NCBI GenBank assembly: GCA_015499995.1
Contig: JADNRV010000096.1
Coordinates: 147,782 to 211,781 of the forward strand
Length of the DNA stretch: 64,000 nucleotides
Direction of reading: 5' to 3'
Origin: Flammula alnicola
Lineage: Eukaryota > Basidiomycota > Agaricomycetes > Agaricales > Strophariaceae
Shown: in pieces, positions 2,661 through 63,500 of the stretch
How the letters are laid out: each line of letters opens with the position of its first letter
Numbering within the stretch: the first letter of the stretch is position 1
The notes under the pieces: generated by a model
Told to the model about the DNA's origin: nothing
The model's database searches: none
The model's input: only the letters and a program-made list of their open reading frames with translations
Made by a program: the position numbers and the translations under genes

Positions 2661-4259
2661 GACAGCGGCCTCACCTGGACCCATATGTAATATATCTCAG
2701 AATCAATACCTCTCCTCTTTCGCCATTGTTAATACTTATTCCCAGCTTATTCCTTTTAATATATTCTGTGCTTTTTTTTATTCCTCCTGGTTGTGTGATT
2801 TGCAAGAAAGTGAAAGTTGACAAATCGTCATACAGATCCTAAATAATGCTATGCTTGATTATGAACCTATTGAAAGCTGATTGCCTTCTTGTATTCGGTC
2901 CTAAGCATTTTATCTGGCTCATAGTTGGCTAGATAGCTTGTCATACCCAGTGAGAACCAGTTCCGTGTCCTCCTGCGTTCAACCGTGGCAGTCTGTGATC
3001 ACGGGAGATCTCAGACCTAATCAGCTAAACTCCCCCCTTGCAGGAACTTTCTGCGTGGTACTGTGTAGATTATAGCCTTAGATAGGTCGCTTTTCTGCAA
3101 ATAAATCTGTATTTCTCTGCAGCGCTCTGCTTTGCTCTGATCCTATCTGAACTTTCTGAATGATCTGAAATCCGTGTATTGCTGTGCTAATCTGTCTACC
3201 CCTGATGTAATCTACGCCCTACCATTGACTCGACCATTGCCTGTAGCATCTATCCGAAGTCCCTGAGCTGTCAGATGAAGGTAACAAAAAAACATCCAAA
3301 CTGACCTGCAAGTTGAGGCTCGTATGACTTGGGATCCTCCCCCTCGAGTGTTCCTTGTCATTTTTCCATTCCTCTCGATCCCAAATGCCGCTTCTTCATA
3401 ACTGCCATGCAGAGGTCCATGCTGGAAACTTTCCGAATCGGATGGTGAAGGAGAGATGTCTAGGGTGGCCGATCGTAGGTTCTGGGGGCTTGCGAGAGTA
3501 CAATTATGGGTACGGTGGAGTCTCTGAATGTAATTAGTAGGTGTATATATGGGCATATATTCAACATGAACTCACTTTCTAGCATCCAGCTCGCCCTTGA
3601 AATGGATACCCACCTCAAACTCACCTAGAAATAGTGCGTAAAAATTCATTTTCCGAAGTAAGGAGCCTCTCTCTTGAAAGTTGAGGCAAACCCAATGAGA
3701 GCCTGAGCGTTGGCTAAGCAAGATGACTGCGAGTCGTGAGAACTTGAACATACCTGGTTAGGCTGATGCTGCATTTGAGTTGACTCTTGAGGCTGATCAA
3801 CCGAAATATGCCAGTGGTAAGTTTTCTATGTGGGAGTATAAGACGTGAATATAACAGAGAGGAATTCTTACCATTCTCAATGAGCCCATGCTATCTCGAG
3901 ATGGTTATACATCTGGCCAGACATATTGTACATTGAGTAGTCCATATAATGATAAGGTCTTTTTGACATATTTCAGTGCAGAGATTCGGAAGAGGGAGGA
4001 AAGAGGGAGGAAAGAGACGAATGAGCGATAAATGACTCCGATGCGCCCAAACTTCAAAGAAACTTGGAAAGCGCATCCAGGTCATGGTCACATGGTTACA
4101 GCTATTATTAGTGCGGCCGCTGGCGCAACGAACTTGAACCTAAGTTAAAGTATTAGTTAGCAATTTGAATACAAGAAATAAAATTTCATGTAACTACCTT
4201 TTGTTGAGCCTTTGTGCGACGGGGTGGATGAGGGAGATGTGAAGGAGGGTGGTGGTGGT
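2661..4259. other. Intergenic, no gene recognised
   Basis: About 1.6 kb between copy B and the truncated foldback element. Open frames are short and low in content (the longest is 114 codons on minus at 3,212-3,556, with no family resemblance). No RNA gene, tandem array or transposon end was recognised. Confidence 0.5.
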
Positions 4260-4266
4260 GGTTGGA

Positions 4267-4306
4267 GATAACCATCAACGACGATTCAACGTCGTTGATG
4301 GTTATC
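4267..4306. repeat. Perfect 17-bp inverted repeat (hairpin)
   Basis: GATAACCATCAACGACG at 4,267-4,283 is followed by a 6-nt loop and its exact complement at 4,290-4,306. A related but imperfect palindrome (around CAACCATGGTTGA) sits at the matching place in copy 3, near 53,772-53,795. Confidence 0.85.
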
Positions 4307-5162
4307 CGGCACTTTCCGAGAGTGATGTGATTGGCTGGTAAATTCGGACCGGTCAGACTCCGATCCGTCGATTGCGGCGCGAGGTGATTAACGGACATTA
4401 CAAGTTCTCTATCTTGCCTTTAGGACCACGAGAACTGTCTTGAAACACTTGCAGAGTGTTTAATTCAATAGAAATAGTAAATAGAATGATAATCCTAAAA
4501 TTTATTTGGACATGGTAAAGATATATCTAACGGTACACACTTCGCAGTCAAGTTATGCATGAAATGATAAGAAATCTTAAAGCAATCCAACCTTCTCCAT
4601 GTCATTTCAAGTTTCCGTCTCTCCACATGTTTTTGGAGCTTCTCAAAGTATCTAGAACACTTTAAACAGACCCATATACAATATTTCAGGTGTTATTTTA
4701 AATTTATGAGGCCTCGAGGAGGCTACCCGTAGCGTTTTCGATTTTAAGCGCCCGAAATCACCACCCTTTCGTATATGCGAATGTATTTCATCCGTGTAGG
4801 CCAGCATCTTTACAGATTCAAAATATTTTATGGTTAATTTGATTTAAATACATAATTTCTAATGATATAATGAGCTCCCAAAGCTCCTAGAACTACGTGA
4901 CTGCGTTGACGCCTGTCCTCGACGACGAGAAAGCGCCGGAAATCGAGCGGTCCGGGATTTCAAGGTCCGCTTGAACCACGATCAACGTGGTTTGACGGCC
5001 AACGCCTTCCACTTTCCTCTGCGCGCGCTGAACCATCCGGCCACGCCATGCTCTCCTTCTCCTCCCACTGCCACTACTTAGGTGTCCAAGCAAATCGGAA
5101 GGTGGTGAGGGGTGAGAAGACGCGAGGGGAGACCCTGGTAGAGGGAGACCCACCCGGTGCGC

Positions 5163-5192
5163 AACGAATCGAGTCATACGACTCGATTCGTT
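5163..5192. repeat. 13-bp perfect palindrome in foldback copy 1
   Basis: AACGAATCGAGTC and its complement flank ATAC. The same palindrome occurs in copy 3 near 53,458-53,487 but is missing from the second arm of copy 3 near 54,830, where CACCCGGTTCGTTTTC runs straight through. Confidence 0.85.
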
Positions 5193-5319
5193 TTCTGTTC
5201 CTATTCTCTCCATCCCATCACTTACCCAATCCATAGGCATAACGACGAGACGACGACCTTGAAAGGTCGTCGTCTCCTCCCTTATTCCGCGCCTGCTGGG
5301 ACACGACGATACGGCGACG

Positions 5320-6180
5320 GCGACGAGGTGGCAGCAGCAGCAGCATGCCCAGTGCTGCTGCTCGGATACGGCGACGGCGACGGCGACGAGATGGAAGCAG
5401 CAGCAGCAGCAGCAGCACGACTGCTGCTGCTGCTCACATACGACAACGACGGCGAGGTGACAGCAGCGGCAGCATTACAACCGCAGCTGCTGCTCGTATA
5501 CGCGAGGACGACAAAGTGGGCGCAGCGCCGGCGGCTAGAACCGTTTCTGCTGCTGGGATACGGCGCAGCAACGAGATGGGAGCAGCAGCAGTACATGACT
5601 GCTGCTGCTGCTGCTGCTCGGCTATGGCGACGACAAGGGGGGCGCAGCAGCAGCACGTTCGCTGCCGCTGCTCGGATATGGTGACGACGACGACGAGCAG
5701 CAGCAGCAGCGCCCACTGCAGCTGCTCGGATACGGCGACGACAAGGGGAAGCTCAGCGGCAGCACGCTCGCTGCCGCTGCTCGGATACGGTGACGACGAC
5801 GACCAGCAGCAGCAGCGCCCATTGCTGCTGCTCAGATACGGCAACGACGGCAAGGTGGGAGGAGCACCAGCAGCACGACGGCTGCTGCTGGGATACGACG
5901 ACGACGGCGACGAGGTGGGAGGAGCGGCAGCGACGGCGGCTGCCGCTCAGATACGGCGACAACGTCGAGCTGGGAGGAGCACCAGCACGACGGCAAGCTG
6001 GGAGCAGCGGCAGCAGCACGATGGCTGCTGCTGCCGCTGCTCAGTACGACGACGGCGACGAGGTGGGCGGAGCGCCAGCAGCGCGACCGCTGTTGCTGCT
6101 CCGTCATGGCGCCGACAACGAGGTGGGAGGGCGGCAGCCGCGATACGACGACAAGGAGGAGAGCGGGGATGAACAGCAGC
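5320..6180. repeat. CAG/CTG-rich tandem array with self-complementary units
   Basis: Degenerate units of roughly 55-65 bp. Each has a GATACGRCGACGACGAGGTG spacer followed by a run of AGCAGCAGC, CACGACGG, then GCTGCTGCT, so every unit can fold on itself. The array is open in many frames on both strands, encoding only Ala/Ser/Gln/Arg-rich nonsense, and is not a gene. Closely related arrays occur in copies 2 and 3. Confidence 0.85.
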
Positions 6181-7539
6181 AGGCGAGGTGACGACGTGCG
6201 TTACTCACGTCGACATGCGCCCTCCTTGCTCGCTTACCCTCGTTTCTCCGCGGTATCGTATTTTATTTGTTGTATACCTTAATAGCATAATTCAAATATA
6301 TTCAATTTTGTCTATTTAATCATTTTTACCTGAGATTTTCGACCAGAGGCACAGGAGGCCAAAAATGAACTGCGTCTATTTTTAAATATGCAGTGCCGTG
6401 GGATTAATTGGAAGTATCTAATCTATAGATAACAGACACAGGCGCCGAGGCACGAGCGTCTGCATCTAAAAATATCAAAGATGCGGCGCTTTTCGGGCTA
6501 TCTAATCTATAGATAATAAAACCAGGCACAAGGGCTAACATCTAAAAATAACAGTGCTCTTTCCGTCTAATTTTAGAATGTCATCCAATGCCATCCTCGT
6601 CAATCCACCCATCCCGCCCCCCGTGAGGCGCGCAAACGGTGGCAATGGGTAGCAATATATTATTAGACCCCACTGCATTTTTTTCCCGGGTCAAAACCGT
6701 CCCAAACGACGAGCACAAGCCAAAATACAACCCCAAGCATCATTTCCTGCATTGTTGATAGGTGTTTACTATCAGCCCCGCCCCAAATGGGACCGTCATC
6801 CAAAGCCAAGCGCCCCAATCCACCCATTCTCGCCCGCCCGCAGGCGCGGAAACACCCAGGATAGGTCAGAATATATTTATAGACTGCAAAAGATTTTTTT
6901 CCACGCCCAAAAGTGGCCCCGATAATGAGCAGCAGCCAAAATACAACCCCGGACATCATTTCCTGCATTATTGACGGCTATTTAGCATGAGCCCCGCCCC
7001 AAACCGCATCGGAACATGCATGGACTAAAAATAGAGTAAAAGTGCCCAAATTTAAAAATAGATTTCCAGGAACAATGATGTCACAGAAATGATGCTCTCC
7101 CGGAAATACCAGTTATTTTTAGAACATCATCCAAAGTCATCCTTTCAAATCCACCCCGTCCCGCCCCCTATAGGGCGCGCATATGACGAATTTGGATAGA
7201 GAAAAATCAGGGCTACGCAATGGTATTTTTTCCCCACTGAAAACCGCCCCCGACAATGAGCAGCACCCAAAATACAGCCCCGGACATCAATTCCTGCATT
7301 GTTGACATGTATTTACTATTACCCGCCCCCAGCAGCAGCTGTATATGCTGCCCCGGCACCACGGCAGCCATTTACAAGTGTCTTGCATGGCCTTAGGCCA
7401 CAGCCTAAGCGGCCCAAACCCGCTATAGATGTATAAGGTAGTTAGCCCACAGCCTAGGAATCATACATGATACCAGCAACTACAGGTGTGGCCTACTCCA
7501 CCCGTAGGATGTCATCCTTGTCGTCGTCGGCTCCAGAAG

Positions 7540-9120
7540 AAGGCGTTGTCAGCCATATCCAGGAGAGAGTCCAGCGTGTTTCACCAGTGCCATCGCGTCG
7601 CATTCGAATCTCATTGAACAAAAACTCCGGGTCCTCTGGTGCCATCTCATTGGCCTCGGACATTCTTGTTCTTGAAGTGAATCATTCGGGCCTTCAATTT
7701 GAGAACGCAGCAGACCTTGTTGATCGAATCGGTGCACTGCGCATCACGCAGCCTTTCCTCCATCCCAGCCACCCCAAGGCAACAGATACACTCACAATTT
7801 GCACTAGGTAGTCGAGACGGCAGCCAAATATCGGCATCTTCAGGTTTTTCTGACTTTGGAAGAGCCTGTGCAGAAGAAGCGTGGGTGCTTTGATCCATCT
7901 GGTATTGAAGAAGACCGGGCATGTAGATAGGAACGAGCTGCTCCCATGCTCGAAGGCGTATGCAGAGAGTGTTTTGTTCCTCCGTCAAGCTTCGCTCCTG
8001 CCCAATCGCACCGCTCGATTTGGATGCCATAGCCTTCGAGAGGCGCTGCAGGCGACGCCTAAATCAAAAATAGTCAGCCAAACTATCCGACGATTAGCTG
8101 GCTTTAGTTACTTACTGAGTATCTTCCAAATCCAAGCCCATTTGAACAAAAGATGCTGCCGACGTGGCATGCAGAGATATCCCACCGTCTGCTAGTCGGC
8201 GTTCCTCCTCCTCTGCGAGCTGCTTCTTGCCCTCCAGCTCCAATAAATCTGCCGCTTGGGTTGAGAAAACAACAGGAGCAGTGCGTGAACCACAACTTAC
8301 ATGTGCTGTCCAAGTGATACGGGTTTTTCTTCTTCTTAGGGAACTCGTCCTGCTTCCATTCGACGGATATTGTCTCCCATGACTTCAACGAGTTCCGGAT
8401 CCAACGACTCGGTAAGTCCACGATGTGCCTCCTTGTGTAGATTTTGCTGCGCCATGGCCGCCTTGTACCTCCAAAGCAGAGTAAGGCCCAGCCCGATGTA
8501 TTTCAGCCAGTTCCAAAAGCTGAAGTGATCGTCGAAGACGTCGTGTCGAGTCCCAGGCCCTTGAGTTTTTGTCGAATTCGCCAATGGGTTGTGAGGCCCC
8601 CAAACATGCTTGGGGCATTCGCAATCCGAATGGCCACAGCCTTTGATGTAGTTGAGTGAGTAGACCTGGTGCCCAGTCGGCTGATGCATCAGCTCATGAA
8701 GTTTGGGAATTGCGGGGATCAGCTTGGTATTGGGACGCAGCTTGATCTCTTCGGGCCAATGCTCCTCCATCTGCTTGTGGAGGTTGATGAACCATTGGCA
8801 GCAGATATCGTAGCTAATAAGAATCAGACCGACCATGAAGAACTGGAGACTTGAGCCGAATACGTAGTCCATGTTTGCATACCTGTCAATGCGATTAGAT
8901 TTTGTAGACCGAGCTTCAAAAAGCAAATGGCATACCTTTCACCCTTGTGCAGATTTCCTACGCCCAAGGAGAGTATCATCTCGGAACGGCCACACACCGT
9001 TAAGGAGAGGCCGGTATACCTTAGGCCCAAGGAGAATTTCATGTTCGCTTTAGCCAGCGCTTGAAGGCCGACACAGGTGCTTATCTGCCCATGTTTGTTG
9101 GTTGGAGGGTAGAAGCCCAA
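7540..9120 (-). pseudogene. KDZ-family transposase, degenerate fragment
   Basis: Minus-strand reading gives the core of a KDZ (Kyakuja-Dileera-Zisupton) DNA transposase: RYTGLSLTVCG, then GVGNLHKGER, YANMDYVFGSSLQ, LISYDICCQWFINLHKQME, HQVYSLNYIKGCGHSDCE, and a C-terminal helical region with LEGKKQLAEEEERRLADG and KPEDADIWLPSRLP. The SYDICCQW and KGERYANMDY motifs identify the family. Frame changes are needed near 8,340 and 8,250 and again near 7,660, and the N-terminal cysteine cluster is absent, so it cannot make a full enzyme. The foldback end at 7,487 borders its C-terminal side. Confidence 0.85.
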
Positions 9121-15627: not shown

Positions 15628-15684
15628 GTATAGCTGAATTTCTTTTGTGTTACTTGGTTTTTTTTGCTTTGATTGATTTGAAAT

Positions 15685-18344: not shown

Positions 18345-18632
18345 TAGACTCCATATGGAGTCCATGTGGAGTCCACACGGAGTCCACGTGGAGACTCCAT
18401 ATGGACTCCACCGGAGTCCAGCTAAGTCCATGTGGAGTCCAACAAAGTCTAGAAGGACTCCACATGGACTCCACATGGACTCCACATGGACTCCACATGG
18501 ACTCCACATGGACTAAGTGGAGTTGTACTATTTTTTTTGGATTTTATATGGAGTCCATCTGGAGTCCATCTGGACTCCACCAATTTTATGCGGAGTCCAT
18601 GGAGTCCACCAGGAATAGGTGGAGGAGGGTAA
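18345..18632. repeat. Right subterminal TGGAGTCCA array and end of KDZ element
   Basis: More than a dozen GGAGTCC/GGACTCC motifs, including five consecutive ACATGGACTCC units, ending in GGAGTCCACCAGGAAT and GGAGGGTAAAG. This is the inverted counterpart of the left end. Confidence 0.85.
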
Positions 18633-18952: not shown

Positions 18953-18960
18953 GCCATTGT
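18953..18960. repeat. Target-site duplication, left copy (foldback copy 2)
   Basis: GCCATTGT immediately before the element, repeated exactly at 21,630-21,637 immediately after it. Confidence 0.85.
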
Positions 18961-21629
18961 CAGCCATGTAAGCTAGAATTATATATGATACCTGGGCTGC
19001 CTGCTAATAAGGAGTGTACATCCACAAGGCTAACAACCCCCTTGGGCAGTTGCCCAACACCATGCAACATAATATCTACAGGTTGCCGGGGTGCCAGGGA
19101 TGGCTTTGGCGCTTGTTGTTGGGGCGGATGATGGTAAATAGGTATCAACAATGCAAGATATGACGTCCAGCACTGTATTTTGGGTGCTGCTCATTGTCGG
19201 GGGCGCTTTTGGGCGCGGAAAAAAATCTAATAGGATCTATTAATATATTCTGGCCTGCCCCCACTGTTTGCGCACCTCGGAGAGGGCGGGGGCGGGTGGA
19301 TTGACAAGAATGGCTTTGGATGACGTTCCTATTTGGGGCGGGGCTGCTGTCAAACAACTGTCAACAATGTGGGAAATGATGCCCGGGGTTGTATTTGGGC
19401 TCTTGCTCATCGTCGGAGGCGATTTTGGGCACGGAAAAAGCGGGGATGGGTTGCTGTAATTTTTTTCACCCCATATTAGGGGTTTGCCCCACTGTCGGGG
19501 GGGCGGGATGGGATGGATTAAAAAGGATGGCTCTGGATAAACCTGCAATATTTTCGCGTTGCCGCTGCACTATTTTTAGATACATCAAATCAATGACATC
19601 ATTGAATCAGTCTCCTTTCCGGGGTGCGGCTTTTATTTCCGGGTGCCTGGAAATCGTTACCCCCGCCTCGGGCGCACTAGAGAGATGGTAATTTAAAAAT
19701 AGATTCACATCTTTTCATAGCTTTTCATGTGCCGCTTGCCCTTCCCACTTGTTATGTATTAAATAAATGACATATCTGTACTCTACAAGTAATTCTGAAT
19801 ACAATTATACTTACGTTATGGTCAGGAAAGGACGGGAGCGGCGCCCGCTGCTGCTGCTGCTCGGATACGCGATGACAAGGGGAGTAGCAGCAGTACCCCA
19901 CTGCTGCTGCTCGGACACGGCGACGACGTCGAGGTGGGAAGAGCAGCAGCACGACGGCTGCCCCTCGGATACAACGACGACGGCAAGTTGGGAGCGACAG
20001 CAGCAGTACACCACTGCTGCTGCTCGTATATGACGCCGGTGATGAGGTGGGGAACAGCGGCAGCAGCACGACCGCTGCTGCCGCTCGTATACGGATCCGA
20101 CGACGAGGAGGAGGAGGGCGGAGCAGCGGCAGCACGACCGCCGCTGCTGCTCGTATACGGATGCGGCGACGAGGAGGAGGAGGTGGTGGGAGCAGCTGCA
20201 GCAGTACGACCGCTGCTGCTGCTCCTATACGGATACGGCGACGGACGACGAAGTGGACACAGCAGCAGCAGCACGACAGTGGCTGCTGCTCATATGCGGC
20301 GACGGCGATAAGGCGGAAGCAGCAGCAGCGCCCAGTGCTGTTGCTCGTATACGGCGACGACACGGGGGATCAGCAGCACGACTGCTGCTGCTGCTCGGAT
20401 ATGGTGACGACGAGCACGAGCAGTGCCCAGATACGGCGACGAGGAGGAGGTGGGAGGAGCACCAGCACGATCGATGGCTGCCGCTGGGATATGACGACGA
20501 TGGAAAGGTGGCAGCAGTGGCAGCAGCACGATGGCTGCTGCTCGGATACAGCGACGACGAGATGGAAGCACCACCAGCAGCGCGAGCGCTGTTGCTGCTG
20601 CTCCATTATGACAGCGACAACAAGGTGGGAGCAGCGGCGGCAGCGATACGACGACAAAGAGGAGAACGAGGATGAGCAGCAGCAGGAGAGGTGACGACGT
20701 GTATTACTCACGTCGACATATGCCCTCCTTGTTCTCTTGTCCTAGTTTCACTCCTGTATTGTATTTTTTTTTTGTTGTATACCATAGCACAGTTAAAATA
20801 TATTTAATCTTTTTACCTGAGATTTTCGAGCAGAGAAAATGAACCAAGTCTATTTATAAACATGTTGCATGGGACTAATAAAAACATATCTAATCTATAG
20901 ATAACAGACAGACGCCTAGGCATGTCTGCATCTAAAAATATCATGCTGGGCGCTTTCTTGCAATCTAATCTATAGATAAGGAACCGACACAAGGCACAAG
21001 CGCCGGCATCTAAAAATATCATACGGGGCGCTTTCCGTCTAATTTTAGAATGTCATCCAAAGACATCCTCGTCAATCCACCCATCCCCGCCCCCATGAGG
21101 CGCGCAAAGGGCGGCAATGGGTAACAATATATTACTGGACCCTATTGGATTTTTTTCCGTGCTCAGAACCGCCCCCGACGATGAGCAAGAGCCCAAATAC
21201 AACCCCGGGCATCATTTCCCACATTGTTGACAGTTGTTTGACAGCAGCCCCGCCCCAAATAGGAACATCATACAAAGCCATTCTCGTCAATCCACCCGTC
21301 CCCGCCCTCCCCGAGGCGCGCAAATGGTGGGGGCAGGTCAGAATATATTAATAGATCCTATTAGATTTTTTTCCACGCCCAAAAGCGCCCCCGACAATGA
21401 GCAGCACCCAAAATACAGTGCTGGACGTCATATCTTGCATTGTTGATACCTATTTACCATCATCCGCCCCAACAACAAGCGCCAAAGCCGTCTCTGGCAC
21501 CCCGGCAGCCTGTAGGTATTATGTTGCATAGTGTTGGGCAACTGCCCAAGGGGGTTGTTAGCCTTGTGGATGTACACTCCTTATTGGCAGGCAGCCCAGG
21601 TATCATACATGATACTGGCACATACAGGT
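18961..21629 (+). mobile_element. Foldback element copy 2, complete, 2,669 bp
   Basis: Flanked by a perfect 8-bp duplication. The left end starts CAGCCATGTAAGC and the right end finishes CACATACAGGT. Just inside are long inverted arms: the 18,981-19,690 segment (TGATACCTGGGCTGCCTGC ... CAACAATG ... AAAAATCTAATAGGATC) is matched in inverted orientation by 21,050-21,612. The interior holds the CAG/CTG array at 19,840-20,690. No transposase-like frame is present, so it must depend on an enzyme made elsewhere. The 8-bp duplication fits hAT- or KDZ-type cleavage, but the enzyme family is unknown. The terminal bases of the two ends are not exact complements. Confidence 0.85.
19840..20690. repeat. 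CAG/CTG tandem array of foldback copy 2
   Basis: Same unit type as at 5,320-6,180: GAGCAGCAGC, CACGACSG, GCTGCTGCTC, GGATACGRCGACGACG spacers. It ends in the same sequence (GAGCAGCAGCAGG, then TACTCACGTCGACAT) as the other copies. Confidence 0.85.
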
Positions 21630-21637
21630 GCCATTGT
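21630..21637. repeat. Target-site duplication, right copy (foldback copy 2)
   Basis: GCCATTGT, identical to 18,953-18,960. Confidence 0.85.
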
Positions 21638-23896: not shown

Positions 23897-26800
23897 ATGC
23901 CACTCGTCATATGTACCTGTACCCTTTGCAAGAAGAAATTGGTTAGCATTCATGGGGTTGAACAACCAGGTCAACAAGTTGATGCATCAACTCATTTGCT
24001 TCATGAGAAACGTGACAAGCGCCCAGCATCACCTAAACCAAAGCATCAACCATCTCTCAGTACATCATCACGACGCTCCAGCAACTCAAACTTGCCAAAG
24101 GGTATACAATTCTATTTGCCCTCTTGTATATTTGATATCTAACTTCTAATCATAAAGAAATCCCCCTTTCTACTGGATCACTTGTGAAATTGATTTGTAT
24201 TTTTGTTGTCTGGCTGCACATTAGGGCCGGTGTTAGCCGCTCAGTGGCCAACAAAATTCTGCAGGGAATCCAGCTCATCCTGTCTATAACTCTGTCTCTG
24301 GTGGAGGTCGCTCTTGTATCATCTGGGATTTATATCCAGTTTCCTCGCATCAAACTTCCTCATGATGTCCGAACCGCATACCAGCTCTATTCTATTGGAC
24401 CAGACCTTATTCGGACCGCCTGCTGCCCCAAGTGCTTTTCCCTATACCCCCAGCCTGTACCTTGGAAATGCCAATGGAAGCCATCACCTAAGTCTCGTCC
24501 ATGCAATACCAAGCTATGGAAGAGTCAGAACACGCGCAAAGGACCTAAATGGGTCCCTCGAAGTTTATACACCACGCAATCCTTTGATTCATGGCTTCGT
24601 TTTTTCTTATCACATCAAGTAATCGAGGACGCTCTTCAAGGCACATTTCGCCAACATATTGACCATCCGGTCGCATTTGGATCTGACATGAATGATATCC
24701 AAGATAGTCCTCCATGGAAGGACTTACATGGGTTTTTTCAGTCTCCTCGCCATCTGATTTTTGGGATATATATTGATTGGTTCAATCCATTTACCAATAA
24801 AATTGCTGGTAAGTCACTATCATATTTAAATATCTCTCTATTAATATTTTATATCTAATTGATAGGCAAGCATGCATCTTGCAGTGCCATCGTTCTCTAC
24901 TGCTTAAACCTACCCCCACATCTCCGCTACAGGCCAGAGAATACCTTCATCATTGGTCTTACTCCTCCTCCTCATGTACCTACCGCGACCACCATCTGTC
25001 ATCTTCTTGACCCCATCATTGCATCTGCTGCCAAATACGGTATCACTTCCGGCCAAAATGTACCAACATTTTACCATCCTGCTGGCGCATCGGTAGAGGT
25101 GAAAATTGCACCTCTGATTGCCGATCTTGAGGCAAGCCGAAAAGTTGCTGGATTCCTGACCCACACTGCTACTATGTTTTGCTCCTTCTGTCTCTGCACC
25201 CAGAATCAGATAGAGGATCTTAATTTCAATCTTGGCAGCTACGTGACAGTGCCAAAGTATGAGAGCAGGCAGAGGCATGGCGTAACAAATCGACAAAAGC
25301 TACACGAGAGGCTTTAGAAACTGCTTCTGGTGTATGGTGGTCTCCATTTCATCATCTACCATACTGGGATCCAGTCAAGCATGTTGTGCTAGGATTTATG
25401 CATAACTGGCTCGAAGGAATTCTGCAGCATCATCTTCGTACACTTTGGGGTATTGGTCGGGATGAAAACGAAAGCCAGAAAGTGAAAGAGGTAGAGAAGG
25501 ATGAGCAGTGGACTGAGGAGGATGTATCTGACTCTGCCGATGAACTGGATGATCTCATTCAAGAGGCAGCTGAACACGACATCGCGACTTCCATGGCTAT
25601 GCAACAAGATCAACCTCCATCGCCATCTATGACCCCTCCCTTATCTCCATCTCTCTCTTCGAACTCAGCTTCTGGTTCCAATGCAACTGGATCATCTTCA
25701 TCCAATACACCTACTCCTTCACAGCATCCCACCACTCCTTATCTATATAGCTTCCTCGACGAGGATAGTGACGATGATCCAGACTTTATTCCTGCCAACA
25801 CTTTGCCCTTTAGTTTCAGCAATGCTGAGCTACAGGCTATTCGCGATTGTATCTGGGATGTCAGCCTTCCAACATGGGTACAGCGTCCACCAACCAATCT
25901 TGGAGAGCCTGGCCATGGAAAACTCAAAGCTCGCGAATATCTCACTCTGTTCTCGAATATTTTCCCACTCATTATTCCCGAGTTCTGGCATACTACAACA
26001 GCCACAGATGACCATCACCAACATTTTCTATGCTTTTATCACTTAGTTGCTGCAACCAACATTATCTCCTCCTTCAAAACTTCCAATGCTGCAGCAGATG
26101 CATATACGCAGCACTACATCCAGTATCGGATGACTAGCCAACATTTATTTCCTTATTATTCCTCCAAACCCAACCATCATTATGCTATGCACAATGGTCC
26201 TTTACTCAAGTACTGGGGACCTCTTGCTTCTTTCAGTGAGTTTCCGGGCAAGCGAATGAATGGAATGCTCCAGCGCATCAACACAAACCACCATCTTAGT
26301 ATGTTTTCATTTTTATCTGGCATATATACTTGATACTAACACAGAAATAGGGGATTTGGATCTTACTATGCTCCGTCAAATGAGCCGAAGGGCCCGCTTA
26401 GATGCTCTGCTGCACGATAGCAAGGACATCAAAGATCTCGCCAATATTCTTGACCCAGCAACTCCATCCGTGGAAAATGATCCAGTATCTCCTGCAGATC
26501 AGGCCAACAGTTTAGCCAAGCCACCTAAACTCCCAGCAGCAGATTATAATGCTCTACTTCACTATTTGCATCAAACTGGATGGCCTTACCGAGCATTTAA
26601 TGCCTTTCCACACCCCGAAAATTCCATTATTCTTCCTCCACAGGCTCAGTATCCTCTTCAGATCCACCGTGATGAGTGCACTGTCAGCTGTCAAAAATCA
26701 CACAAAGGAAACAGTGCTATTCAATTTTATAACCCATTTACACACAGGAATGACACAGGATTTATTGAAGCTATTTGGAGGCTTCCTCTCGAGGCTATGA

Positions 26801-27048
26801 TGCGCTCCTTTATTGTTGTCCGTCAACACCGATCACTTCCAGTTTCTGAAGAGGCAAAGGCACCATTTATCCACTATTATGGGTTTCAAACAAGGATTGT
26901 TGATGCCCGGCCATCCGACGACTTGGTCATTATCGAGCCTACATACATTATCACACACCTCACAACTTTTCAACGACCGGCAGGGACTTATGGTATTGGT
27001 ATGGAGACATTGGTAGTCTGTTGGGCTTCAAATAGAGGAAGGAAATAA
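23897..27048 (+). CDS. CACTA transposase, Tnp2 / Transposase_21 type
   Basis: Starts at Met 23,897. Exon 1 carries a zinc-ribbon-like ICTCTLCKKKL and GVEQPGQQVDASTHLLHEKR, typical of the N terminus of fungal Tnp2-like proteins. After an intron (about 24,102-24,150) comes a helical region with CCPKCFSLYP (second Cys pair), then YIDWFNPFTNK, which contains the core Asp. An intron near 24,810 leads to NLPPHLRYRPENTFIIGLTP, then CSFCLCTQ and a break before MLGFMHNWLEGILQHHLRTL. Next are a Ser/Thr-rich acidic linker, a conserved C-terminal block (ALHYLHQTGWPYRAFNAF-like) and a terminal domain to 27,048. The stop near 25,317 falls between conserved blocks and may be an unrecognised intron. It is probably the enzyme that moved the surrounding element; whether it is still active is uncertain. 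Confidence 0.8.
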
Positions 27049-50018: not shown

Positions 50019-51494
50019 CTGAGCTTTAGGCGCTCTTTTAGACCCCAACACTTTTCGCACTTCCCAACCACTACTGTCAACACTCCTCATCTTATATCCT
50101 CCTTCTGTTTATCATAGCATCATGTCTCTGCCATCTGTGCCTATTTGCAACCTATCTGGGACATTCTCCGCCGCAAACTCCTCATGTTTGTGCTTACACC
50201 GGATACTCGTCGCATTTCTGCGGCCTCGATGGCTCTAGTGGGCTAACCAACCAGATGGTAGCTGTGCCTCATTATTTCTTCTTGAAGTTCTCGTCTCATC
50301 CTCATCTGTGTAGGGTAATTACATGCGCGGGCTCGAGTCACTAGATCTCCAGAGCCTGTCGCTTGCGTGCGCGTACGACGCTGGCTGTGTTTCCTGGCGC
50401 ATGTCGCGGTGAAACCCCTCCGCCGTTCGCTTTCTTCGCTGATTTCGATCCCTCGTCCGTGGTAAGTTATTATATTCCTTACATTTCGTATCTTCACTTG
50501 ACAATCCCAACTGTTCTTTCATAGGCGGATTTTTATCCCTTGCATCCCGAGGAATCTCAGAGGCTGATATGGATAGTGAACCGCCTTCCAGACTGGTCGG
50601 GCTGGCTCAGCGACTGCTAGATGCGACTTGGGTCTTCACCCGTCGTAGGCCCCTCGTCGCATATTCTCCCTCGCCCCACCGGTGCTTGGTGCGTATATTT
50701 TATGTTTCTTCCTGTTATATCTTTTGATTTTAACAGTCTATTGCATAGCAGGCAATCCCAACCATGGATCTCGATGAACCGCGTTGTCACTGCCTCCAGC
50801 TACCCCCGGTGTGTATCGTTTTGTGTTTTCTTTGTTTTTCGTTCTACCTAACTCCTTGGTCTAGCGGCCATCCAGAGGTGAGGCGGGCGAGACTCAACCG
50901 TCTCCGACGCCTATCCTTGAGGTAGTTGGACGTCCCGAGGAGCGGCTTCGCTGTTTGTCGAGGTACCTCCTCGTCCTTCGAAGATCGCAAGGGAAAGGGC
51001 AAGGCTCGTGCGCGAACTCCGCCCCCGTCTCTCCCTCGTCCCCTCGTTACCCGTGCTGCCGCTGCTAAGCTAGCAGCTGTTTCTCGTCAAGAGGCTCGCC
51101 CTGGGGTTGCTTCTGGCTCACGGGTTACGCTGGATACTGACCAAACCCCCCCTCGGCCTCTCAAACGCAAGGTGGCTGCTCTGGGCGACGCTCGTAGCAA
51201 GCGCCCTCGACTAGAGGTGACCCCTGAGGCCCCCGAGCTGGTTTCTTCTCCTTCTAGCAAGTTGGCTGCTGCCCAACTCGCTCTGCTTTTGGGTGCGGTA
51301 CCCAAACCCTGGTGAGTTCTTTCATGTCTTATTATTCCATGCATTTATCTCCTCGTTTTGTATCTTTAGGCGCCCCCCGTGTGTATTGCGTGCGGTCTCA
51401 AAGGATTAAAACCTGAGGACTGCATCGTACCACAGGGTGAACAGGGCTGTATCCCATGCCAGAGGAGCCGCCGTGGCATCTGCTCTTTCAGAGC

Positions 51495-51502
51495 CAAGCT
51501 CC
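51495..51502. repeat. Target-site duplication, left copy (foldback copy 3)
   Basis: CAAGCTCC, matching CAAGCTCA at 56,785-56,792 in seven of eight bases. Confidence 0.75.
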
Positions 51503-52454
51503 ACCTGTAGTCGCTGGTATCATGTATGATTCCTAGGCTGTGGGCTAACTACCTTATACATCTATAGCAGGTTTGGGCCGCTTAGGCCACTGCCTAAGGC
51601 CATGTATATACTATATACAATGTGCCGGGGGTGCCGGGACAGGTTGTGTGGTCGTTGCTGGGGGCGGGCAGTAGTAAACATAGATCAACAATGCAGGAAA
51701 TGGTGTCCGGGACTGTATTTTGGGTGCTGCTCATCGTTGGGGGCGCTTTTGGGCGCGGAAAAAATTCCAATAGGGTCTATAAATATATTCTGACATAATG
51801 CAGGTATTTGCGGGCCTCTTGGGGCGGGAATGGGTGGATTGCGGCAGGTGGGTTTGGATGACGGTCCCATTTGGGGCGGGGCTGATGGTAAACACCTGTC
51901 AACAATGCAGGAAATGATGCTCGGGCTTATATTTTGGCTCGTGCTCATCGTTTGGGGCGGTTCCGACTGCGGAAAAAAATCCAATAGGGTCCAGTAATAT
52001 ATTGCGACCCATTGCCGCCCTGTGCGCGCCTCATGGGGGGCGGGGATGGGTGGATTGAGAAGGATGACTTCGGATGACGTTCTAAAATTAGATGGAAAGC
52101 GCCGGTGCGATATTTTTAGATGCCAGCGCTTGTGCCTGGTTTATTATCTATAGATTAGATAGCCAGAAAGCGCCCTAGTTAGATATTTTTAGATTCAGAC
52201 GCTCGTGCTTCGGCACCTGTCTCCGTTATCTATAGATTAGATACTTTCGATTAATCCCACGGCACTGCATATTTAAAAATAGATGCAGTTCATTTTGGCC
52301 TCCTGCATCGAAAACCTCAGGTAAAAAAGATTAAATAGACAAATTTGAATATATTTGAATTATGCTATTAAGGTATATACAATAAAATAAGATACAGCAG
52401 AGAAACGAGGATAAGCGAGCAAGGAGGGCGCATGTCGACGTGAGTAACGCGCGT

Positions 52455-53340
52455 CATCGCCTCGCCTGCTGCTGTTCATCCCCGCTCTCCCCCTTGTCGT
52501 CGTATCGCTGCTGCTGCCATCCAACCTCGTTGTCAGCGCCATGACGGAGCAGCAACAGCGGTCGTGCTGCTGGCGCTCCGCCCACCTCGTCGTCGTCGTC
52601 GTATGGCAGCGATAGCCGTCGTGCTGGTGCTCCTCCCAGCTCGACGTTGTCGCCGTATCTGAGCGGCAGCCGTCGTGCTGCCGCCGTCGCTGCCACCTCG
52701 TCGTCGTCGTCGTCGTATCCGAGCGGCAGCCGTCGTGCTGCTGCTCTTCCCACCTCGTCGCCGTCGTCGTCGTATCCCAGCGGCAGCCGTCGTGCTGGTG
52801 GTGCTCCTCCCACCTTCCCGTCGTCGCCGTATCTGAGCAGCAGCAATAGGCGCTGCTGCTGCTCGTCGTTGTCGTCACCGTATCCGAGCAGCGGCCGCGA
52901 TCGTGCGGCTATTGCTGCACCACCTTATCGTCGCCGTGTCCGAGCAGGAGCAGCAGCGGTCGTGCTGCCGCGGCTGCTCCCCCTGGTCGTCGCCGTATCC
53001 GAGCAGCAGCTGTGGACACTGCTGCTGCTGCTCCCACCTTGTCGCCGTCACCGTATGCGGGCAGCAGCCGCCGTCGTGCTGCTGCTGCTGCTGCTGCTGT
53101 GTCCACTTCGTCGCGTCGTGTACAAGCAGCAGCAGCGGTCGTGCTGCTGCCCGTGTTCCCCCGTCGTCGTCGCCGTATCCGAGCAGCAGCAGCGGTCGTG
53201 CTGCTGTTGCCGTTCCCCATCGTCGTCGTAGTCGTACCCATATACGAGCAGCAGCAGCGGGTGTGCTGCTGCTGCTGCGCCCTCGTCGTTAGGGCAGTTG
53301 TACCCGTATACGAGCAGCAGCAGCCCTCCTGCTTCCACCT
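52455..53340. repeat. CAG/CTG tandem array, left arm of copy 3
   Basis: Same hairpin-forming units as the other copies, here in inverted orientation. Many overlapping Ser/Ala/Cys-rich frames are artefacts of the repeat. Confidence 0.85.
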
Positions 53341-53457
53341 GAGCGCTGTCGCCGTCGCCGTGTCCGAAAGAGACGAAGACCACTCAACGGTCGCCATCAT
53401 CTCGTCATCCTGCCTGTGGATTGGGTGAGTGCGGGAGGGAGAGAGGAAGAGCAGAAA

Positions 53458-53487
53458 ACGAATCGAGTCATACGACTCGATTCGTTG
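53458..53487. repeat. 13-bp palindrome in copy 3
   Basis: AACGAATCGAGTC, a four-base centre, and its complement; identical to 5,163-5,192. Confidence 0.85.
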
Positions 53488-54929
53488 CGCACCGGGTGGG
53501 TCTCCCCTCGTGTTCCTCTGCCCCTAAACCCCCCACCCCAGATACTTCAAAGGCCGGCCCACATCCTCAAGGAGGGGGAAGGGCACGCGGTGTCGTTGGC
53601 GCTAGTGTGCTAGCCGTGTGTCGATGGGGTGGGCTTGGTGACTTGCTGGCCTGTTCATTCGTGGTGCGACGTAGGGCCGGCGGTGTTGACGTGGAACAGC
53701 GGCTGTGGGTTGGTATTGCGAAATGGCGCGGTGGCAGCGAGGCGATAGGTGAAGATGGGAGTCGAGAGCTGCAGCCTGCGTTCAACCATGGTTGATCGCA
53801 TTTCGGCATAAGCCGAAAACGATTTGATTGGCTAGGACAAGCGGTCCGCGTCTCCGCGTCTTCCGTCTTGCTCGTCGAGGATGTCTCGGACGACGTTAAA
53901 CTGACGGGTAACTACGTAGATTAGCGTCGGTAAATTTTTAGAATAGAATTATTTCATATTTTAGCAAGGTCCGAGTTGAGCTTTGATCCTCTGGTATAGT
54001 GCTACTTACATTTCCAGCCATGGGTGGTGATTTACGGTCTTCTGCAGTCGTCTATCTCACCTTTAGGACCTTAAGAATTTCCTTGAATACTCTGAAAGGT
54101 AGATAGTTCAGTAACAATAGTATACCAAATAAGAATTCCAAAATTTATTTAGGCCTAGTGAATGCTTGTTTAATGATACACCCTTTGCACTCAAGTTAGG
54201 CATGAAACAAATGGGAAATCTTGGATCAACTCGACATTCTTCATGTTATTTCAAATCCCTGTCCCTCGACATTTCGTTGAAGCTCCTTGAGGCATCTAGA
54301 ATACTTCTAACTAATCTAGAGATGATATCTGACATATTATTTTTAATTTCAGAAATCTCAAAGGGGGCCATCCGTAGAGTTTGCGATTTCGAGCGCCCGA
54401 AATCACCACTTTCACATGAGTATCATATATGAGCATAATATCATATCATATGTTGAGACTCCAAGGTAATTTTTAATCTCAGTAATTTCAATGGATATTT
54501 TAGGATATAAATTATGTTTCAAACGGTCCTAGAATTGGTTTACAGTGGCGTTGACGCTATCTTCGACGACGAGAAAGCTCCGGAAATTGAGCGGTCCGGT
54601 AATTTCAAGCTCCGCTTGAGCCGCGATCAACGATTTTCAACATCATTAGACGCTCATCCCCAACGCCTGCCACCTCCCTCTTCGCTCACGAACCGTCCGG
54701 CCGCACCTCCGCTTTCCATCTCCTCGAAGCCACTACATAGGTGTCCAACCAATTCGCAACCAATTCGCAAGGGGGTGACAGGTGAGAAGACGCGAGGGGA
54801 GACCCTGGTAGAGGGAGACCCACCCGGTTCGTTTTCTGTTCTTCATCTCTCCCTCCCCTCACTTACCCAATCCATTGGTTAGATGACGAGATGGTGACCT
54901 TGAAAGGTCGTCGTCTCTTTTCTTCTGCT

Positions 54930-55620
54930 CGGACACGACGATACGGCGACGGCGACGAGGTGGGAGCAGCAGCAGCAGCATTCCCACTGCTGCCGCTCGG
55001 ATACGACGACGACGAGGTAAGGGGAGCAGCAGCACGACGGCTGCCACTCCGATATGGCGGCGACGGCAAGGTAGGGAGCGGCAGCAGCACGACGGCTGCT
55101 GCTGCTCAGATACGGCGACGGCGACGAGGTAGGAGCGGCAGCGCGACACTGCTGCTCGGATATGACAACGGCGGCGAGGTGACAGCGGCAGCACGACCGC
55201 TGCTGCTGCTCGACAATGGCGGCGAGATGGCAGCAGCGGCAGCAGCATGACCGCTGCCGCTGCTCAGCTACAGGGACTACGTTGAGGTAGGAGGAGCAGC
55301 AGCGCGACGGCTGCCGCTCGGATATGACGACGACGACGAGGTGGCAGCAGCGGCAGCAGCACGACGGCTGCTGCCACTCGGATACGACAACGACGTCGAG
55401 GTGGGGGCAGCGGGGGCAGCACGACGGCTGCCGCTCGGACACGACGACGACGACGAGGTGGCAGAAGCAGCAGCAGCGGTCGCGCTGCTGCTGCTTGGAT
55501 ACGACGACGACGAGGTGGCAACGCGGCAGCAGCACGACCGCTGCTGCTGCTCGGATACGACAACGATGACGAGGTGCCGGCGGCAGCAGCAGCACAACAC
55601 GATCGCTGCTGCTGCGATGC
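54930..55620. repeat. CAG/CTG tandem array, right arm of copy 3
   Basis: Units of GATACGACGACGACGAGGTG plus AGCAGCAGC/GCTGCTGCT inverted runs, in opposite orientation to the left-arm array. Confidence 0.85.
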
Positions 55621-56784
55621 GATACGACGGCTACGGCTACGGCCCCACAACCCGGACGACGGCCTCCGCTCTCGTCCTTTCTCTCTCGTCCTGTAAATTT
55701 AGCCTAGTTGTTAGAATACATAGTAGTTTAATAATAATATATTCATTATTTTTGCCTAATTCATGCTTAAGTGCCCGAAAGGAAATCCTCGTCATTTGTT
55801 CGTATCTAATCTATAGATAACGCTGAGGCACGAATGTCGGCACCTAAAAATATCATGCCGGGACGCTCGGCGTCTAATTTTAGAACGTCATCCAAAGTCA
55901 TCCTCGTCAATCCACCCATTCCCGCCCCCGTGAGGCGCGCAAAGGGCGGCAATGGGTAGCAATATATTATTAGACCCTATTAGATTTTTTCCCCGCTGTC
56001 CAAACCCCCCCCCAACGATGAGCGCGAGCCAAATCACCACCCCAAGCATCAAATCCGACATTATTGACATCTGTTTACTATCAGCCCCGCCCCAATTGGA
56101 AGCGTCATCCAAAGCCAAGCGCCCAATCCACCCATTCCCGCCTGCTGGCAGGCGCGGAAACACCCAGGATAGGTCAAATTATATTTATAGACTGCAAAAT
56201 AATTTTTTCCAGGCCCCAAAGCGCCCCCAATAATGTGCAGCAACCAAAATACAGACCCGGACGTCATTTCGTGCATTATTGACAGCTATTTACCATGAGC
56301 CCTGCTCCAAGCCGATCGGAACTAAAGATAGATTACAAGTGCCTAAAATTAAAAATAGATTGCCAGGAACATGATGTCACAGAAATGATGCTCTCCCCGA
56401 AATACCAGTTATTTTTAGAACGTCATCCAAAGTCATCCTTTCAAATCCACCCCGTCCCGCCCCCCATAGGGTGCGCATATGACGGATTTGGATAGAGAAA
56501 AATCAGGGCTATGCAATGGTATTTTCCCCCCACCCAAAACCGCCCGCGACGATGAGCAGCACCCAAAATACATCCCCGGACATCAATTCCTGCATTGTTG
56601 ACATGTATTTACTATCACCCGCCCCCAGCAGCAGCTGTATATGCTGCCCCGGCACCCCGGCAGCCTTTTAAAAGTGTCTTGCATGGCCTTAGGCCACGGC
56701 CCAAGCGGCCCAAACCCGCTATAGATGTATAAGGTAGTTAGCCCACAGCCTAGGAATCATATATAATTCTAGCTTACAAGGCTG

Positions 56785-56792
56785 CAAGCTCA
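56785..56792. repeat. Target-site duplication, right copy (foldback copy 3)
   Basis: CAAGCTCA; see 51,495-51,502. Confidence 0.75.
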
Positions 56793-57444
56793 AGGACCAG
56801 ATGCCAGACTTTGAGTCTTTCCTCGAGTTTGGCCAGTCATTCCTGACCAGTAAGTTCCCCGTTTATTGGCATATTCTTTCCTGACTAACTTGTGGACCCC
56901 CCTAGATCTTCAAAATCTATTCGAACGGATCCAGCGCATTAGCGCCACCAACGTCCTTCAACGAGCGCTCGTGCGGCAGAGTGACCTCGAGATCTCCGTT
57001 TTGTCGCGTGAGGTCTTGGGTATCTTGTATCGGCTCGTTGCCTCGGATCCCGACAACTCATTCCGGGAGTTGTACCTTGCTGACGACGATGCTATGGAGA
57101 CGCTGATCGACGTTTTGTCGGCTTTGTCTCCTGGCGATCTGTCTTCCAACGATCGGTACCCTACTCACTCGACTTCCCTCTCTGAGCTGTCTCTTCTGCT
57201 GCAGGGGGTTGCTACTCCACCCTGGCTTCTTCACCCTAGCCACATCCTTCCTCCTCGCCCTCGTGTCGTTCCATATCAGGAGAGCGAGCCTGACGCCGAC
57301 GAGGCCTCTGCCTTCCTCGACACCGATTCGGAGCGTGCTACTTTAGACGCTCTTGATCGCGACGTGGGCGACTTGGACGATTTCGAGTGCTACCAGTAGT
57401 TTTGGACCTGGTAAGTCCCACCTTATCCTTTCTTCACATAGGTA

Positions 57445-60585: not shown

Positions 60586-63500
60586 CTATGACAGGGGCGA
60601 TGCATAGTTAAGACACGACTGCTGGAATGCTTTGTCGGCCACCAGTGCCATTTTATACCAAAATAAATATTTGCGATGGGCGTAGGCTTTGGCGCCGGCA
60701 CTCGCACTGGGTATATCCAGGGCAGATCTCCACTTACTACTCTCACGCGTCCAATAGCGTACAGTCCACTGCATTTCATATGCGACAAGTGTGAGTTCCT
60801 CATGCCATCGTTGTCTTTGTGCCCGGGCGCGTAGCCAGTGAACGCGCTTGACTTGGTTTTAATCAGTAAATGGGGATGTGCTACTGTCATTGAGGGACTC
60901 ACATTCCAAAAGTGTGGCAGGGTCGGCATCATAGAAGTCGGCATCGGCATCGGCAGTAGCACCGGGACCAGCAGTGGCGGCGAGACCGGCACCGGGACCA
61001 CTCCCCAGTATTTGCCATCGTCGTATGTGCCACAGCCAGGATAAGCGTAGCGAGGTTGATCCAGCGATATTCGGATTTACGATAGCAGTACTCGCTCGTA
61101 GATCGGCCTTGGTCAAAACTCGGAATACCCGAAGGGTTTCTGGGTCACAACCCAATTGTACCAATCGCATTCGGCACCGCGAATATATCCTGGCGTGGAA
61201 GACAAGTTCATGCCCAATGCGCCGGACATTTTGATGACCGCGAGTTCGAACAGCCTTTCGGGGCGCTGCTCTGATCACATGTGAGTACTGAAATGAGATA
61301 TCGGCAACAAGCTCCCGAAGTCGATTGAGTTGTGCATGAGCCTGCTTTTTGCGGGCCGAAATTTCGACATGTTTAAGATCACCACCCACATTGCCATTCG
61401 ATGGGAGAGACAGTTGCTGCCGTTCGACAGGAATCATGTCGGTCGATGGAAGTGTCGGTGCCGGTGTCTCCTCGCCCGATATTTCTTCGGCAGCCTCATC
61501 AAATTCTGCCTCATCTTCATCGATCGATGGCATCTCGGGACGTTTGTCAGTGATTTCAGCTGCCTCCTTCAGCTGCTTTAATTTGACCAGAAGCGGCGCA
61601 AGTGCTTCACGAAGCTGTTCAATAATGTGGACTTCGTCCTCCCGAGGGACGGAGCTGAGCCGCCGAACCTTGTCCTGGATATCAATCCTTTGAATGGAAT
61701 TGGTGAATTATATCCAGGGAGCATCTTAGATTACTCACTGTTTCTCCTCAATCATGAGTGAGAACTCAATCCATTGCTGTACCGGTGAAGCCGAGGGTGC
61801 CGGTGCCGGTGCCGAGATTTGTTGCTGCCTATCCGGCACTCGGGCAGCATAGATGTCCATGGCTTTGACATTGGCAAGTCGCATTGCCTCAACTCCCAGT
61901 ACCTCATTTTCCCATGTATTCATCGTCTGCGAATCAACTGTGGCGGACAGTTCTGCATAGTATTTATCTGTTTGCGCCACCATTGCCTTTGCATCTAGGG
62001 AGCGGGAGCATAGTGTTGCGGTCATCGCGAGGGTTTTTTTGTGGTTGGAGTCACATGCATGATCGTCGAGCATCTCAGTCCGATGGGCCAAAGTGGCTGT
62101 TCTGGCTGTTGGGGAAATCTTATTCAAGATCGACCAATTAGACTCTAGGATTTGCCCCTTCACGATACCAGCGCCGGGGATGAACGTGGTTGCGTATCGG
62201 AAATAGCATTCATCCTTATGGGCGTGAACATGAAAATGGTCGATCGCCCGGTCGACTTGGAGGCCGACCGGCAGCAGGTGCCCGATTCGGTCACGGAGAT
62301 GGACAGAGTATTGGCAGCAATGTCGTAGATGAGCATAACCCCTTGCTGGGGGTCACTCTGTGGACTCTAAGGCTTTGAGAAATGCGAAATCAACATTCTT
62401 TTGTTGCTCTCCTTTGAACAAGTCAACGAGAGCGTTCGCACGTAAAACCCGTGTCGGGCGCAGACAAGGCGACCAAACCCGTGATATCACAGGCCTTGGA
62501 AGACAGGAGAGCATTCATGATCGCTCGAAATGTGTTTTCGCATGGGCTTCTGCACGGTTGGTTATATCGGCATCGGCATCGCAGCGGCAGCGGAGTGAAA
62601 GACATACCGTTAATCTCTCGATAGCTGTGCGCAAAAATTCTAGATACTCAGCACGATTGGTGCCATGCCCGCACCATCCAAGAGCCACACATCATCTTGA
62701 GCGCTCTTCTGACGAACGTGATCAGCCTTGAAATTCCCATCGGCAACAAAAATGCGCTGAAATGCAAAGCTTCACGACGTTATACAACCACGGGTGTCAT
62801 ATATGTCGGCACCCACCCGTTTTCATCATCTTTCCAATCATCGGGCAAATTTATTCCGGGCTGTGGACATGCTGGACAGAAATTGGCCAATGAGCCTGGT
62901 GGAGGCTGCATGGGATCCTGTGATTGTGACCATACCCGGCCCATTTGAGTTTCTTCATCCACCGCCATAGCCGCCCCATGCGCCTAAACTCATGGTAGAG
63001 GTTGGAATATCGGCAGTGCCGATCGGCAGTGTTAACCGCCGAAGCAACTGGTCGAACTGATATGCCGATGCTTTGAGCTCCAAATTACACAACCGAAGTA
63101 ATCCAGCAAGGCCAGCGAAAAGAGAGTTCGAATACGGTGAAGCTTGCTGGCATTAATCGAGAGGCCATCAGATCAAGGGAATGCAATCTGCCCCTCGACA
63201 CTGACAGGCGACCATGGCAAGATGATGGATGCCATTTGTATGCACAATACGCACATAAGTATTGTTAGGCATCGGCTGTGGCAATGTGCGATCCTCTTGA
63301 TTGGGGATGCCGGTGGAATGCCGGTGCCGGTGCCGTCATTGCCTGCAGTACCGGGAATATGCCGGTACTGGCACTATCGGATTGTGGTTGGTAGGTGCGG
63401 GCAGATACGGCTCGAATTCTAAGAACTCATCTGGGCTTCTTGCCCTTCAAAATCATCTCACCGTCGCCAAATATGGCAGGATCAGAAGGGTCGACACCAT

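What the first reader, a model, noticed from the sequence alone, without database searches (positions are those of the whole stretch)
51503..56784. Foldback element family with ~2-kb inverted arms and hairpin-forming triplet arrays
Three related copies lie in this window (4,260-7,487 truncated; 18,961-21,629; 51,503-56,784). None encodes a recognisable transposase, yet two have clean 8-bp duplications. The arms contain CAG/CTG arrays in which each ~60-bp unit is itself an inverted repeat, so structure is nested at two scales. A transcript crossing copy 3 would fold into a hairpin of about 2 kb, a likely small-RNA source. I know of no named family with this combination; this is the best candidate here for something undescribed.
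Basis: partly seen in the sequence, partly recalled or inferred. Interest (0 to 1): 0.8.

Follow-up and report, generated by a model that had tools for sequence, protein, structure and literature searches.

The report
Foldback derivatives of a mushroom transposon
These are jumping DNA pieces in the mushroom Flammula alnicola that carry no recognisable genes, fold back on themselves into long hairpins, and share their ends with a larger gene-carrying transposon that encodes a cutting enzyme and a DNA-demethylase-like enzyme.

Summary
The three copies are real and belong to one mobile family with dozens of copies in this genome, a 74.4-Mb assembly identified as Flammula alnicola. The target-site duplication is 7 bp, not 8. 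The ends are CAGCC[A/T]T… and CACCTGTA…, so the element runs 5'-CA…TG-3'. The duplication was exact in 19 of 22 copies checked, and the empty site of copy 3 exists uninterrupted in 19 close relatives. No transposase was seen in the copies, but the genome holds a 15.2-kb element (C556) with the same ends, the same subterminal repeats, 98%-identical arm ends and a perfect 7-bp duplication. It encodes a KDZ transposase and a TET/JBP-like dioxygenase. A second element (C123) has the same ends, genes and gene order. 7-bp duplications with CA…TG ends are published for TET-carrying Kyakuja elements (KDZ superfamily). The finding is therefore a set of non-autonomous foldback derivatives of a Kyakuja-like transposon. 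New here, as far as I could search, are the kilobase inverted arms (the published TET+ Kyakuja are said to have no TIRs) and the hairpin CAG arrays. Copy 1 lies two bases from a remnant of a transposase gene of the same KDZ clade, inside the window. The small-RNA idea is untested.

The parts
51502..56784 (.). Copy 3, complete foldback element, 5283 bp (L-end CACCTGTA left, R-end CAGCCTTG right)
   Evidence: ends and 7-bp duplication; arms; 19 empty-site relatives at 90-97%
51495..51501 (.). 7-bp target-site duplication CAAGCTC, left of copy 3
56785..56791 (.). 7-bp target-site duplication CAAGCTC, right of copy 3
51502..52520 (.). L outer arm of copy 3: terminal repeat plus ~216-bp-spaced subterminal repeats, shared with gene-carrying element C556 (81-82% over about 800 bp)
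52521..53340 (.). L CAG/CTG array, ~57-60-bp hairpin-forming units
53345..54929 (.). Centre of copy 3, no ordinary ORF seen; of 40 genome matches listed to 53530-54700, 28 lie inside paired family elements and 7 beside a single family end
54930..55620 (.). R CAG/CTG array, inverted relative to the L array
55621..56784 (.). R outer arm of copy 3; subterminal boxes lie ~320 bp further in than in the L arm
18961..21630 (+). Copy 2, complete, 2670 bp, subfamily A (R-end left, L-end right)
18954..18960 (.). 7-bp target-site duplication CCATTGT, left of copy 2
21631..21637 (.). 7-bp target-site duplication CCATTGT, right of copy 2
4152..7488 (-). Copy 1, truncated foldback copy with L-end at 7488; no R-end found
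7491..9086 (-). KDZ transposase gene remnant, 69-73% identical to the C556 transposase; two bases from the L-end of copy 1
   Evidence: Pfam PF18758 E 2.2e-29 on 8336-8938; DNA alignment 71.7%

Best explanation
The elements are non-autonomous cut-and-paste DNA transposons of the KDZ superfamily, most likely the Kyakuja lineage. They are mobilised in trans by a KDZ transposase encoded by larger elements with the same ends. The gene-carrying type (C556, 15.2 kb; C123, 16 kb) has, in order, R-end, inverted arm (read in C556 only), a TET/JBP-like dioxygenase gene, a KDZ transposase gene, inverted arm and L-end. The foldback copies keep the CA…TG ends and the subterminal repeats in about 1 kb of arm. 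In place of the genes they have inverted CAG/CTG hairpin arrays and a non-coding centre. Insertion makes a 7-bp target duplication. Shown: shared ends, shared repeats, 7-bp duplications, empty sites, and linkage of one KDZ clade to these ends. Inferred: that this transposase moves them, that the repeats are its binding sites, and that the arrays grew by slippage or unequal exchange of a hairpin-prone unit. A transcript crossing a copy could form kilobase double-stranded RNA. Whether it feeds RNA silencing, while the partner's dioxygenase opposes methylation, is conjecture.
Against: Kojima states that the two Laccaria TET+ Kyakuja families have no TIRs, while this family has kilobase arms. C123 and the copy at C1:1548178 have unmatched 7-bp flanks, and C40 (L017) fits only with a shifted 8-bp repeat. 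Four of the 7 clade KDZ loci show no facing L-end: one contig ends 1.8 kb on (C49), one has stops (C421), one is cut off at copy 1 (window), and C108 is unexplained. No partner was found for subfamily A. Kyakuja versus Dileera or Zisupton was not tested by a transposase tree. The L-end of copy 3 fell in a separate cluster from the C556 R-end, and the L-ends of C556 and C123 were not in that clustering. Pfam finds nothing in the C556 dioxygenase or in P0121 and P0122; its 46%-identical relative P0203 hits Tet_JBP only below Pfam's cut-off (28.3 against 34.9 bits). The C556 KDZ gene was seen only as ORF pieces, and C123 only at its ends and by positions of matches; activity is unknown.
Confidence: 0.9

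Rival explanations
1. The KDZ and dioxygenase genes in C556 are a different KDZ element nested by chance in a foldback copy; the foldback family is moved by something else.
For: Such nesting does occur: C119 carries a 17.8-kb insert with 507-bp, 98.6% identical inverted ends that holds its own KDZ and Tet_JBP matches.
Against: C556 shows no match to the array or centre of copy 3, only to the arms. C346 and C123 show the same gene-to-end spacing at 96% and 74% identity, and C123 the same gene order. None of 64 other KDZ loci is placed so.
Confidence: 0.05
2. A P-superfamily (Galileo-like) foldback transposon: 7-bp duplications, CA-starting ends (recalled for P-type elements) and long internally repetitive arms work the same way.
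For: 7-bp flanks, long internally repetitive TIRs and gene-less long-arm copies are described for Galileo (PMC3573991 and PMC3688188, passages seen).
Against: PF21787 had no match in the genome, though that search rang in none of its 14 control genomes either, so it is weak. A KDZ gene with the same ends was found.
Confidence: 0.02
3. A categorically new transposase-free class.
For: No transposase-like ORF was seen inside the short fetched copies (ORFs of 180 aa or more, read by eye).
Against: Gene-carrying elements with the same ends and repeats exist.
Confidence: 0.02
4. Assembly artefacts (hairpin misassembly) give the inverted arms.
For: Some copies share flanks (C291 and C52; C858 and C429), so duplicate contigs or segmental duplications inflate counts.
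Against: Copies with different flanks and exact duplications, and own-arm identities that vary (0.50-0.98 in 16 copies, the low ones perhaps from insertions) rather than being 100%.
Confidence: 0.01

Closest known systems
Kyakuja (KDZ superfamily), TET+ families such as Kyakuja-1_LB and -2_LB of Laccaria bicolor (Kojima 2025, PMC12730594)
   Same: KDZ transposase plus TET/JBP dioxygenase, 7-bp duplications, 5'-CA..TG-3' termini, Agaricomycetes
   Different: those families are said to have no TIRs; here arms of about 1.2 kb in C556 and nearly 2 kb with CAG arrays in copy 3; the outermost ~20 bp of the two ends differ from each other
Galileo (P superfamily, Drosophila)
   Same: foldback-like long, internally repetitive arms; 7-bp duplications; longest arms in non-autonomous copies; chimeric copies with unmatched 7-bp flanks (passages)
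   Different: another transposase superfamily and kingdom; Galileo TIRs 0.5-1.2 kb; no dioxygenase cargo mentioned in the passages seen
KDZ1-KDZ3 of Cryptococcus neoformans (PMC12810828, passages)
   Same: KDZ transposase; 9-11-kb elements with TIRs, shown to be mobile
   Different: TIRs of 139-241 bp; 8-bp (KDZ1) or 4-8-bp (KDZ2, KDZ3) duplications; no foldback derivatives in the passages seen
KDZ elements of Marasmius oreades (PMC8290104, passages)
   Same: mushroom KDZ elements for which the authors report TIR motifs, and non-autonomous families assigned by TIR and duplication
   Different: non-autonomous elements there mostly under 1,000 bp; details are in a supplement not seen
Mutator/Foldback elements (Tm1, MuTAnT; FB recalled)
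   Same: foldback architecture (search listing and starts of abstracts only)
   Different: Mutator-type; duplications usually about 9 bp (recalled)

Membership tests
Kyakuja (KDZ) | 7-bp target-site duplication | tested here: met
   19 of 22 copies exact; 2 unmatched, 1 shifted 8-bp
Kyakuja (KDZ) | 5'-CA..TG-3' termini | tested here: met
   CAGCC… and CACCTG… ends
Kyakuja (KDZ) | KDZ transposase encoded by an element with the same ends | tested here: met
   C556 PF18758 E 4.5e-36; C346 and C123 linked
Kyakuja (KDZ) | Transposase falls in the Kyakuja branch rather than Dileera or Zisupton | not tested
   reference sequences of the published tree not at hand
Kyakuja (KDZ) | TET/JBP dioxygenase gene (TET+ subset) | tested here: met
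Kyakuja (KDZ) | No TIRs (stated for the two L. bicolor families in PMC12730594) | tested here: not met
   inverted arms in copy 3 and C556 and in the other complete copies compared; I take this as a description of those families, not a defining feature
Foldback elements (structural class) | long, internally repetitive inverted arms making up most of the element | tested here: met
   copy 3:
Galileo (P superfamily) | P-type transposase | tested here: inconclusive
   PF21787 no match, but controls also silent

The most novel reading that the evidence does not exclude
Foldback derivatives of a TET-carrying Kyakuja form a three-way conflict: the autonomous element brings a DNA-oxidising enzyme against methylation; its gene-less foldback parasites borrow its transposase through repeated binding sites in the arms; and their transcripts form kilobase hairpins that feed RNA silencing of the whole family. 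Inverted CAG/CTG arrays would then be maintained because they help transposition or silencing, not by drift.
Probability: 0.2. Interest if true: 0.75.

Novelty: new variant of a known kind. Interest (0 to 1): 0.5.

Why it matters
KDZ elements are common in mushroom genomes (119 matches to the KDZ domain here) but have been called understudied (PMC8290104, passage), so large gene-less repeats such as these may go unclassified. A defined family with a gene-carrying partner, exact ends and duplications gives a way to annotate them. It would add KDZ to the transposase groups with foldback arms, beside P (Galileo) and Mutator. It also makes questions testable: do long arms with repeated sites matter for transposase binding, and does a dioxygenase-carrying element coexist with hairpin parasites that could trigger its silencing?

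Tried and rejected
Galileo/P-element idea: from 7-bp duplications and CA ends I first suspected the P superfamily; PF21787 found nothing but rang in none of its controls, and the KDZ partner superseded it. C119 as the autonomous element: rejected, because its KDZ and Tet_JBP matches lie in a nested 17.8-kb insert with its own inverted ends. C745 (21.4 kb): rejected; a foldback copy with a nested element between 1447-bp direct repeats 99.86% identical, by its ORFs an LTR retroelement (by eye). C579 (40.7 kb, exact duplication): interior not read. The 90-kb pairing on C858 is taken as two unrelated ends; its flanks were not compared. Concerted evolution of the two arms: own-arm identity is high in several copies (up to 0.98), but arms of other copies are often as close, so I make no claim. 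A first version of that comparison found the ends of only three elements and was redone (then 59). Sequence-profile match of the dioxygenase to solved structures: nothing meaningful; the fold comparison gave the answer. Papers: I saw no paper in the held library on foldback Kyakuja/KDZ in searches (only the listed top of each was looked at), and none names Flammula alnicola together with transposable elements (0 papers). The library lacks most subscription journals; Iyer et al. 2014 on KDZ was not read (recalled, and cited by the papers seen). Papers seen only in part: PMC12730594 (abstract, passages, sections 11 and 18), PMC12810828, PMC7641404, PMC3573991, PMC8290104, PMC3688188 (passages).

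Full report
What was checked. Copy 3 was re-measured: it is 51502-56784, with L-end CACCTGTAGTCGCTGG and R-end CAGCCTTGTAAGCTAG, flanked by CAAGCTC on both sides. Copy 2 is 18961-21630 with CCATTGT. The 25 longest of 63 inverted pairs match at 70-90%, over nearly 2 kb on each side. CAG/CTG arrays with 57-60-bp units lie in both arms. Hairpin z-scores below -2 occur in 14 of 25 array windows and 7 of 81 others. The whole-element fold is -2909 kcal/mol, against -1868 and -1866 for two shuffles.

A family in the genome. The window lies on contig C858 of a 74.4-Mb assembly. Protein records on contigs of exactly the same lengths (135911, 807652 and 84431 bases, that is C49, C556 and C123) are named Flammula alnicola (lengths), a mushroom of the Agaricales. 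The R-end pattern has 86 places and the L-end pattern 75, with no hits for the reversed patterns. Of 63 pairings, 57 are 2.7-8.4 kb long; one R-end is used twice, and 12 L-ends and 24 R-ends stayed unpaired. At least three end subfamilies exist. Of 22 copies with both flanks read, 19 have an exact 7-bp duplication; C291 and C52 share one site, so they are not independent. C123 and C1:1548178 have none, and C40 shows a shifted 8-bp repeat. The joined flanks of copy 3 match 19 uninterrupted relatives at 90-97%, plus 9 at 70-73%; C429 carries the same insertion at the same site.

Gene-carrying partner. Four long pairings also have exact duplications. C745 and C119 are foldback copies with nested elements; C579 was not read. 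C556:6053-21252 is different. It matches copy 3 only in the arms. Its arms are 95.7-95.8% identical over 646 and 428 aligned bases and 98.1% over about the first 520. It carries subterminal boxes within 2 bases of the positions seen in 3 of 4 foldback arms; the R arm of copy 3 has them about 320 bp further in. It has a KDZ transposase ORF (PF18758, E 4.5e-36) and a second gene on the other strand. The KDZ sequence defines a clade of 7 loci (66-100%; all others at 43% or less, apart from short pieces of three of the seven and a 53-residue fragment at C382). Three of the 7 face an L-end at 2.6-2.9 kb, against 0 of the 64 other loci of that list within 6 kb. The first 1.6 kb after the KDZ ORF is shared with C346 (96%), C49 (95%) and C123 (74%), and in part with the window and C108. 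C123 repeats the order R-end, dioxygenase, KDZ, L-end. Its R-end clusters with the third subfamily, whereas the C556 R-end clusters with the R-end of copy 3 and the L-end of copy 1. So two subfamilies each seem to have a partner; subfamily A (copy 2) has none yet.

In the window. A KDZ gene remnant of the same clade (7491-9086, minus) ends two bases from the L-end of copy 1. Copy 1 has lost its other end near 4152, so whether it inserted into that gene or was joined to it later cannot be told.

What it works like and what it is. Kojima 2025 (PMC12730594) describes two TET+ Kyakuja families with 7-bp duplications and CA..TG termini, but without TIRs. The family meets the duplication, terminus, transposase and cargo criteria; the transposase branch was not tested. 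It differs by its inverted arms. TIRs as such are not new for KDZ: KDZ1-3 of Cryptococcus have 139-241-bp ones, and TIR motifs are reported for Marasmius KDZ or Plavaka elements (supplement not seen). It works like Galileo, in which long repetitive arms hold several transposase-binding sites and the longest arms occur in gene-less copies (PMC3573991, PMC3688188). That the arms here act the same way is inference. So is any link to small RNAs.

Noticed in passing
L012, L014, L015, L016, L028: Five R-ends share their outer flank and a common inner boundary about 2.2 kb in (…CATCCCTCCAAGT): half of a foldback element appears to have been captured in another dispersed repeat.
   Followed up: partly
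window 15682-18123: ORFs with CxC5 (PF18718, E 2e-29) and CxC6 (PF18721, E 5e-11) cysteine clusters, which Pfam names as associated with KDZ transposases, lie beside copy 2.
   Followed up: no
window 61735-62352: A second KDZ transposase fragment of a distant clade (24% identity to the C556 ORF).
   Followed up: no
window 51400-51501 and 56785-56900: Copy 3 interrupts the reading frame of a repeated gene with a CIPCQRSRRGICSFRAK motif; 19 close uninterrupted relatives exist.
   Followed up: partly
L051-L053 (C119): A foldback copy hosts an 896-residue ORF that looks like a reverse transcriptase (by eye) and a nested 17.8-kb insert with 507-bp, 98.6% identical inverted ends and its own KDZ and Tet_JBP matches.
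   Followed up: partly
L054-L056 (C745): A foldback copy hosts an element between 1447-bp direct repeats 99.86% identical, by its ORFs an LTR retroelement (by eye).
   Followed up: partly
window 18347-18512: Array of 11-base units (GGACTCCACAT and variants) just before copy 2.
   Followed up: no
window 24136-27048: ORFs with a motif resembling CACTA/Plavaka-type transposases (HLPYWDPVKHVVLGFMHN, resemblance recalled); Pfam gave no match over its cut-off.
   Followed up: no
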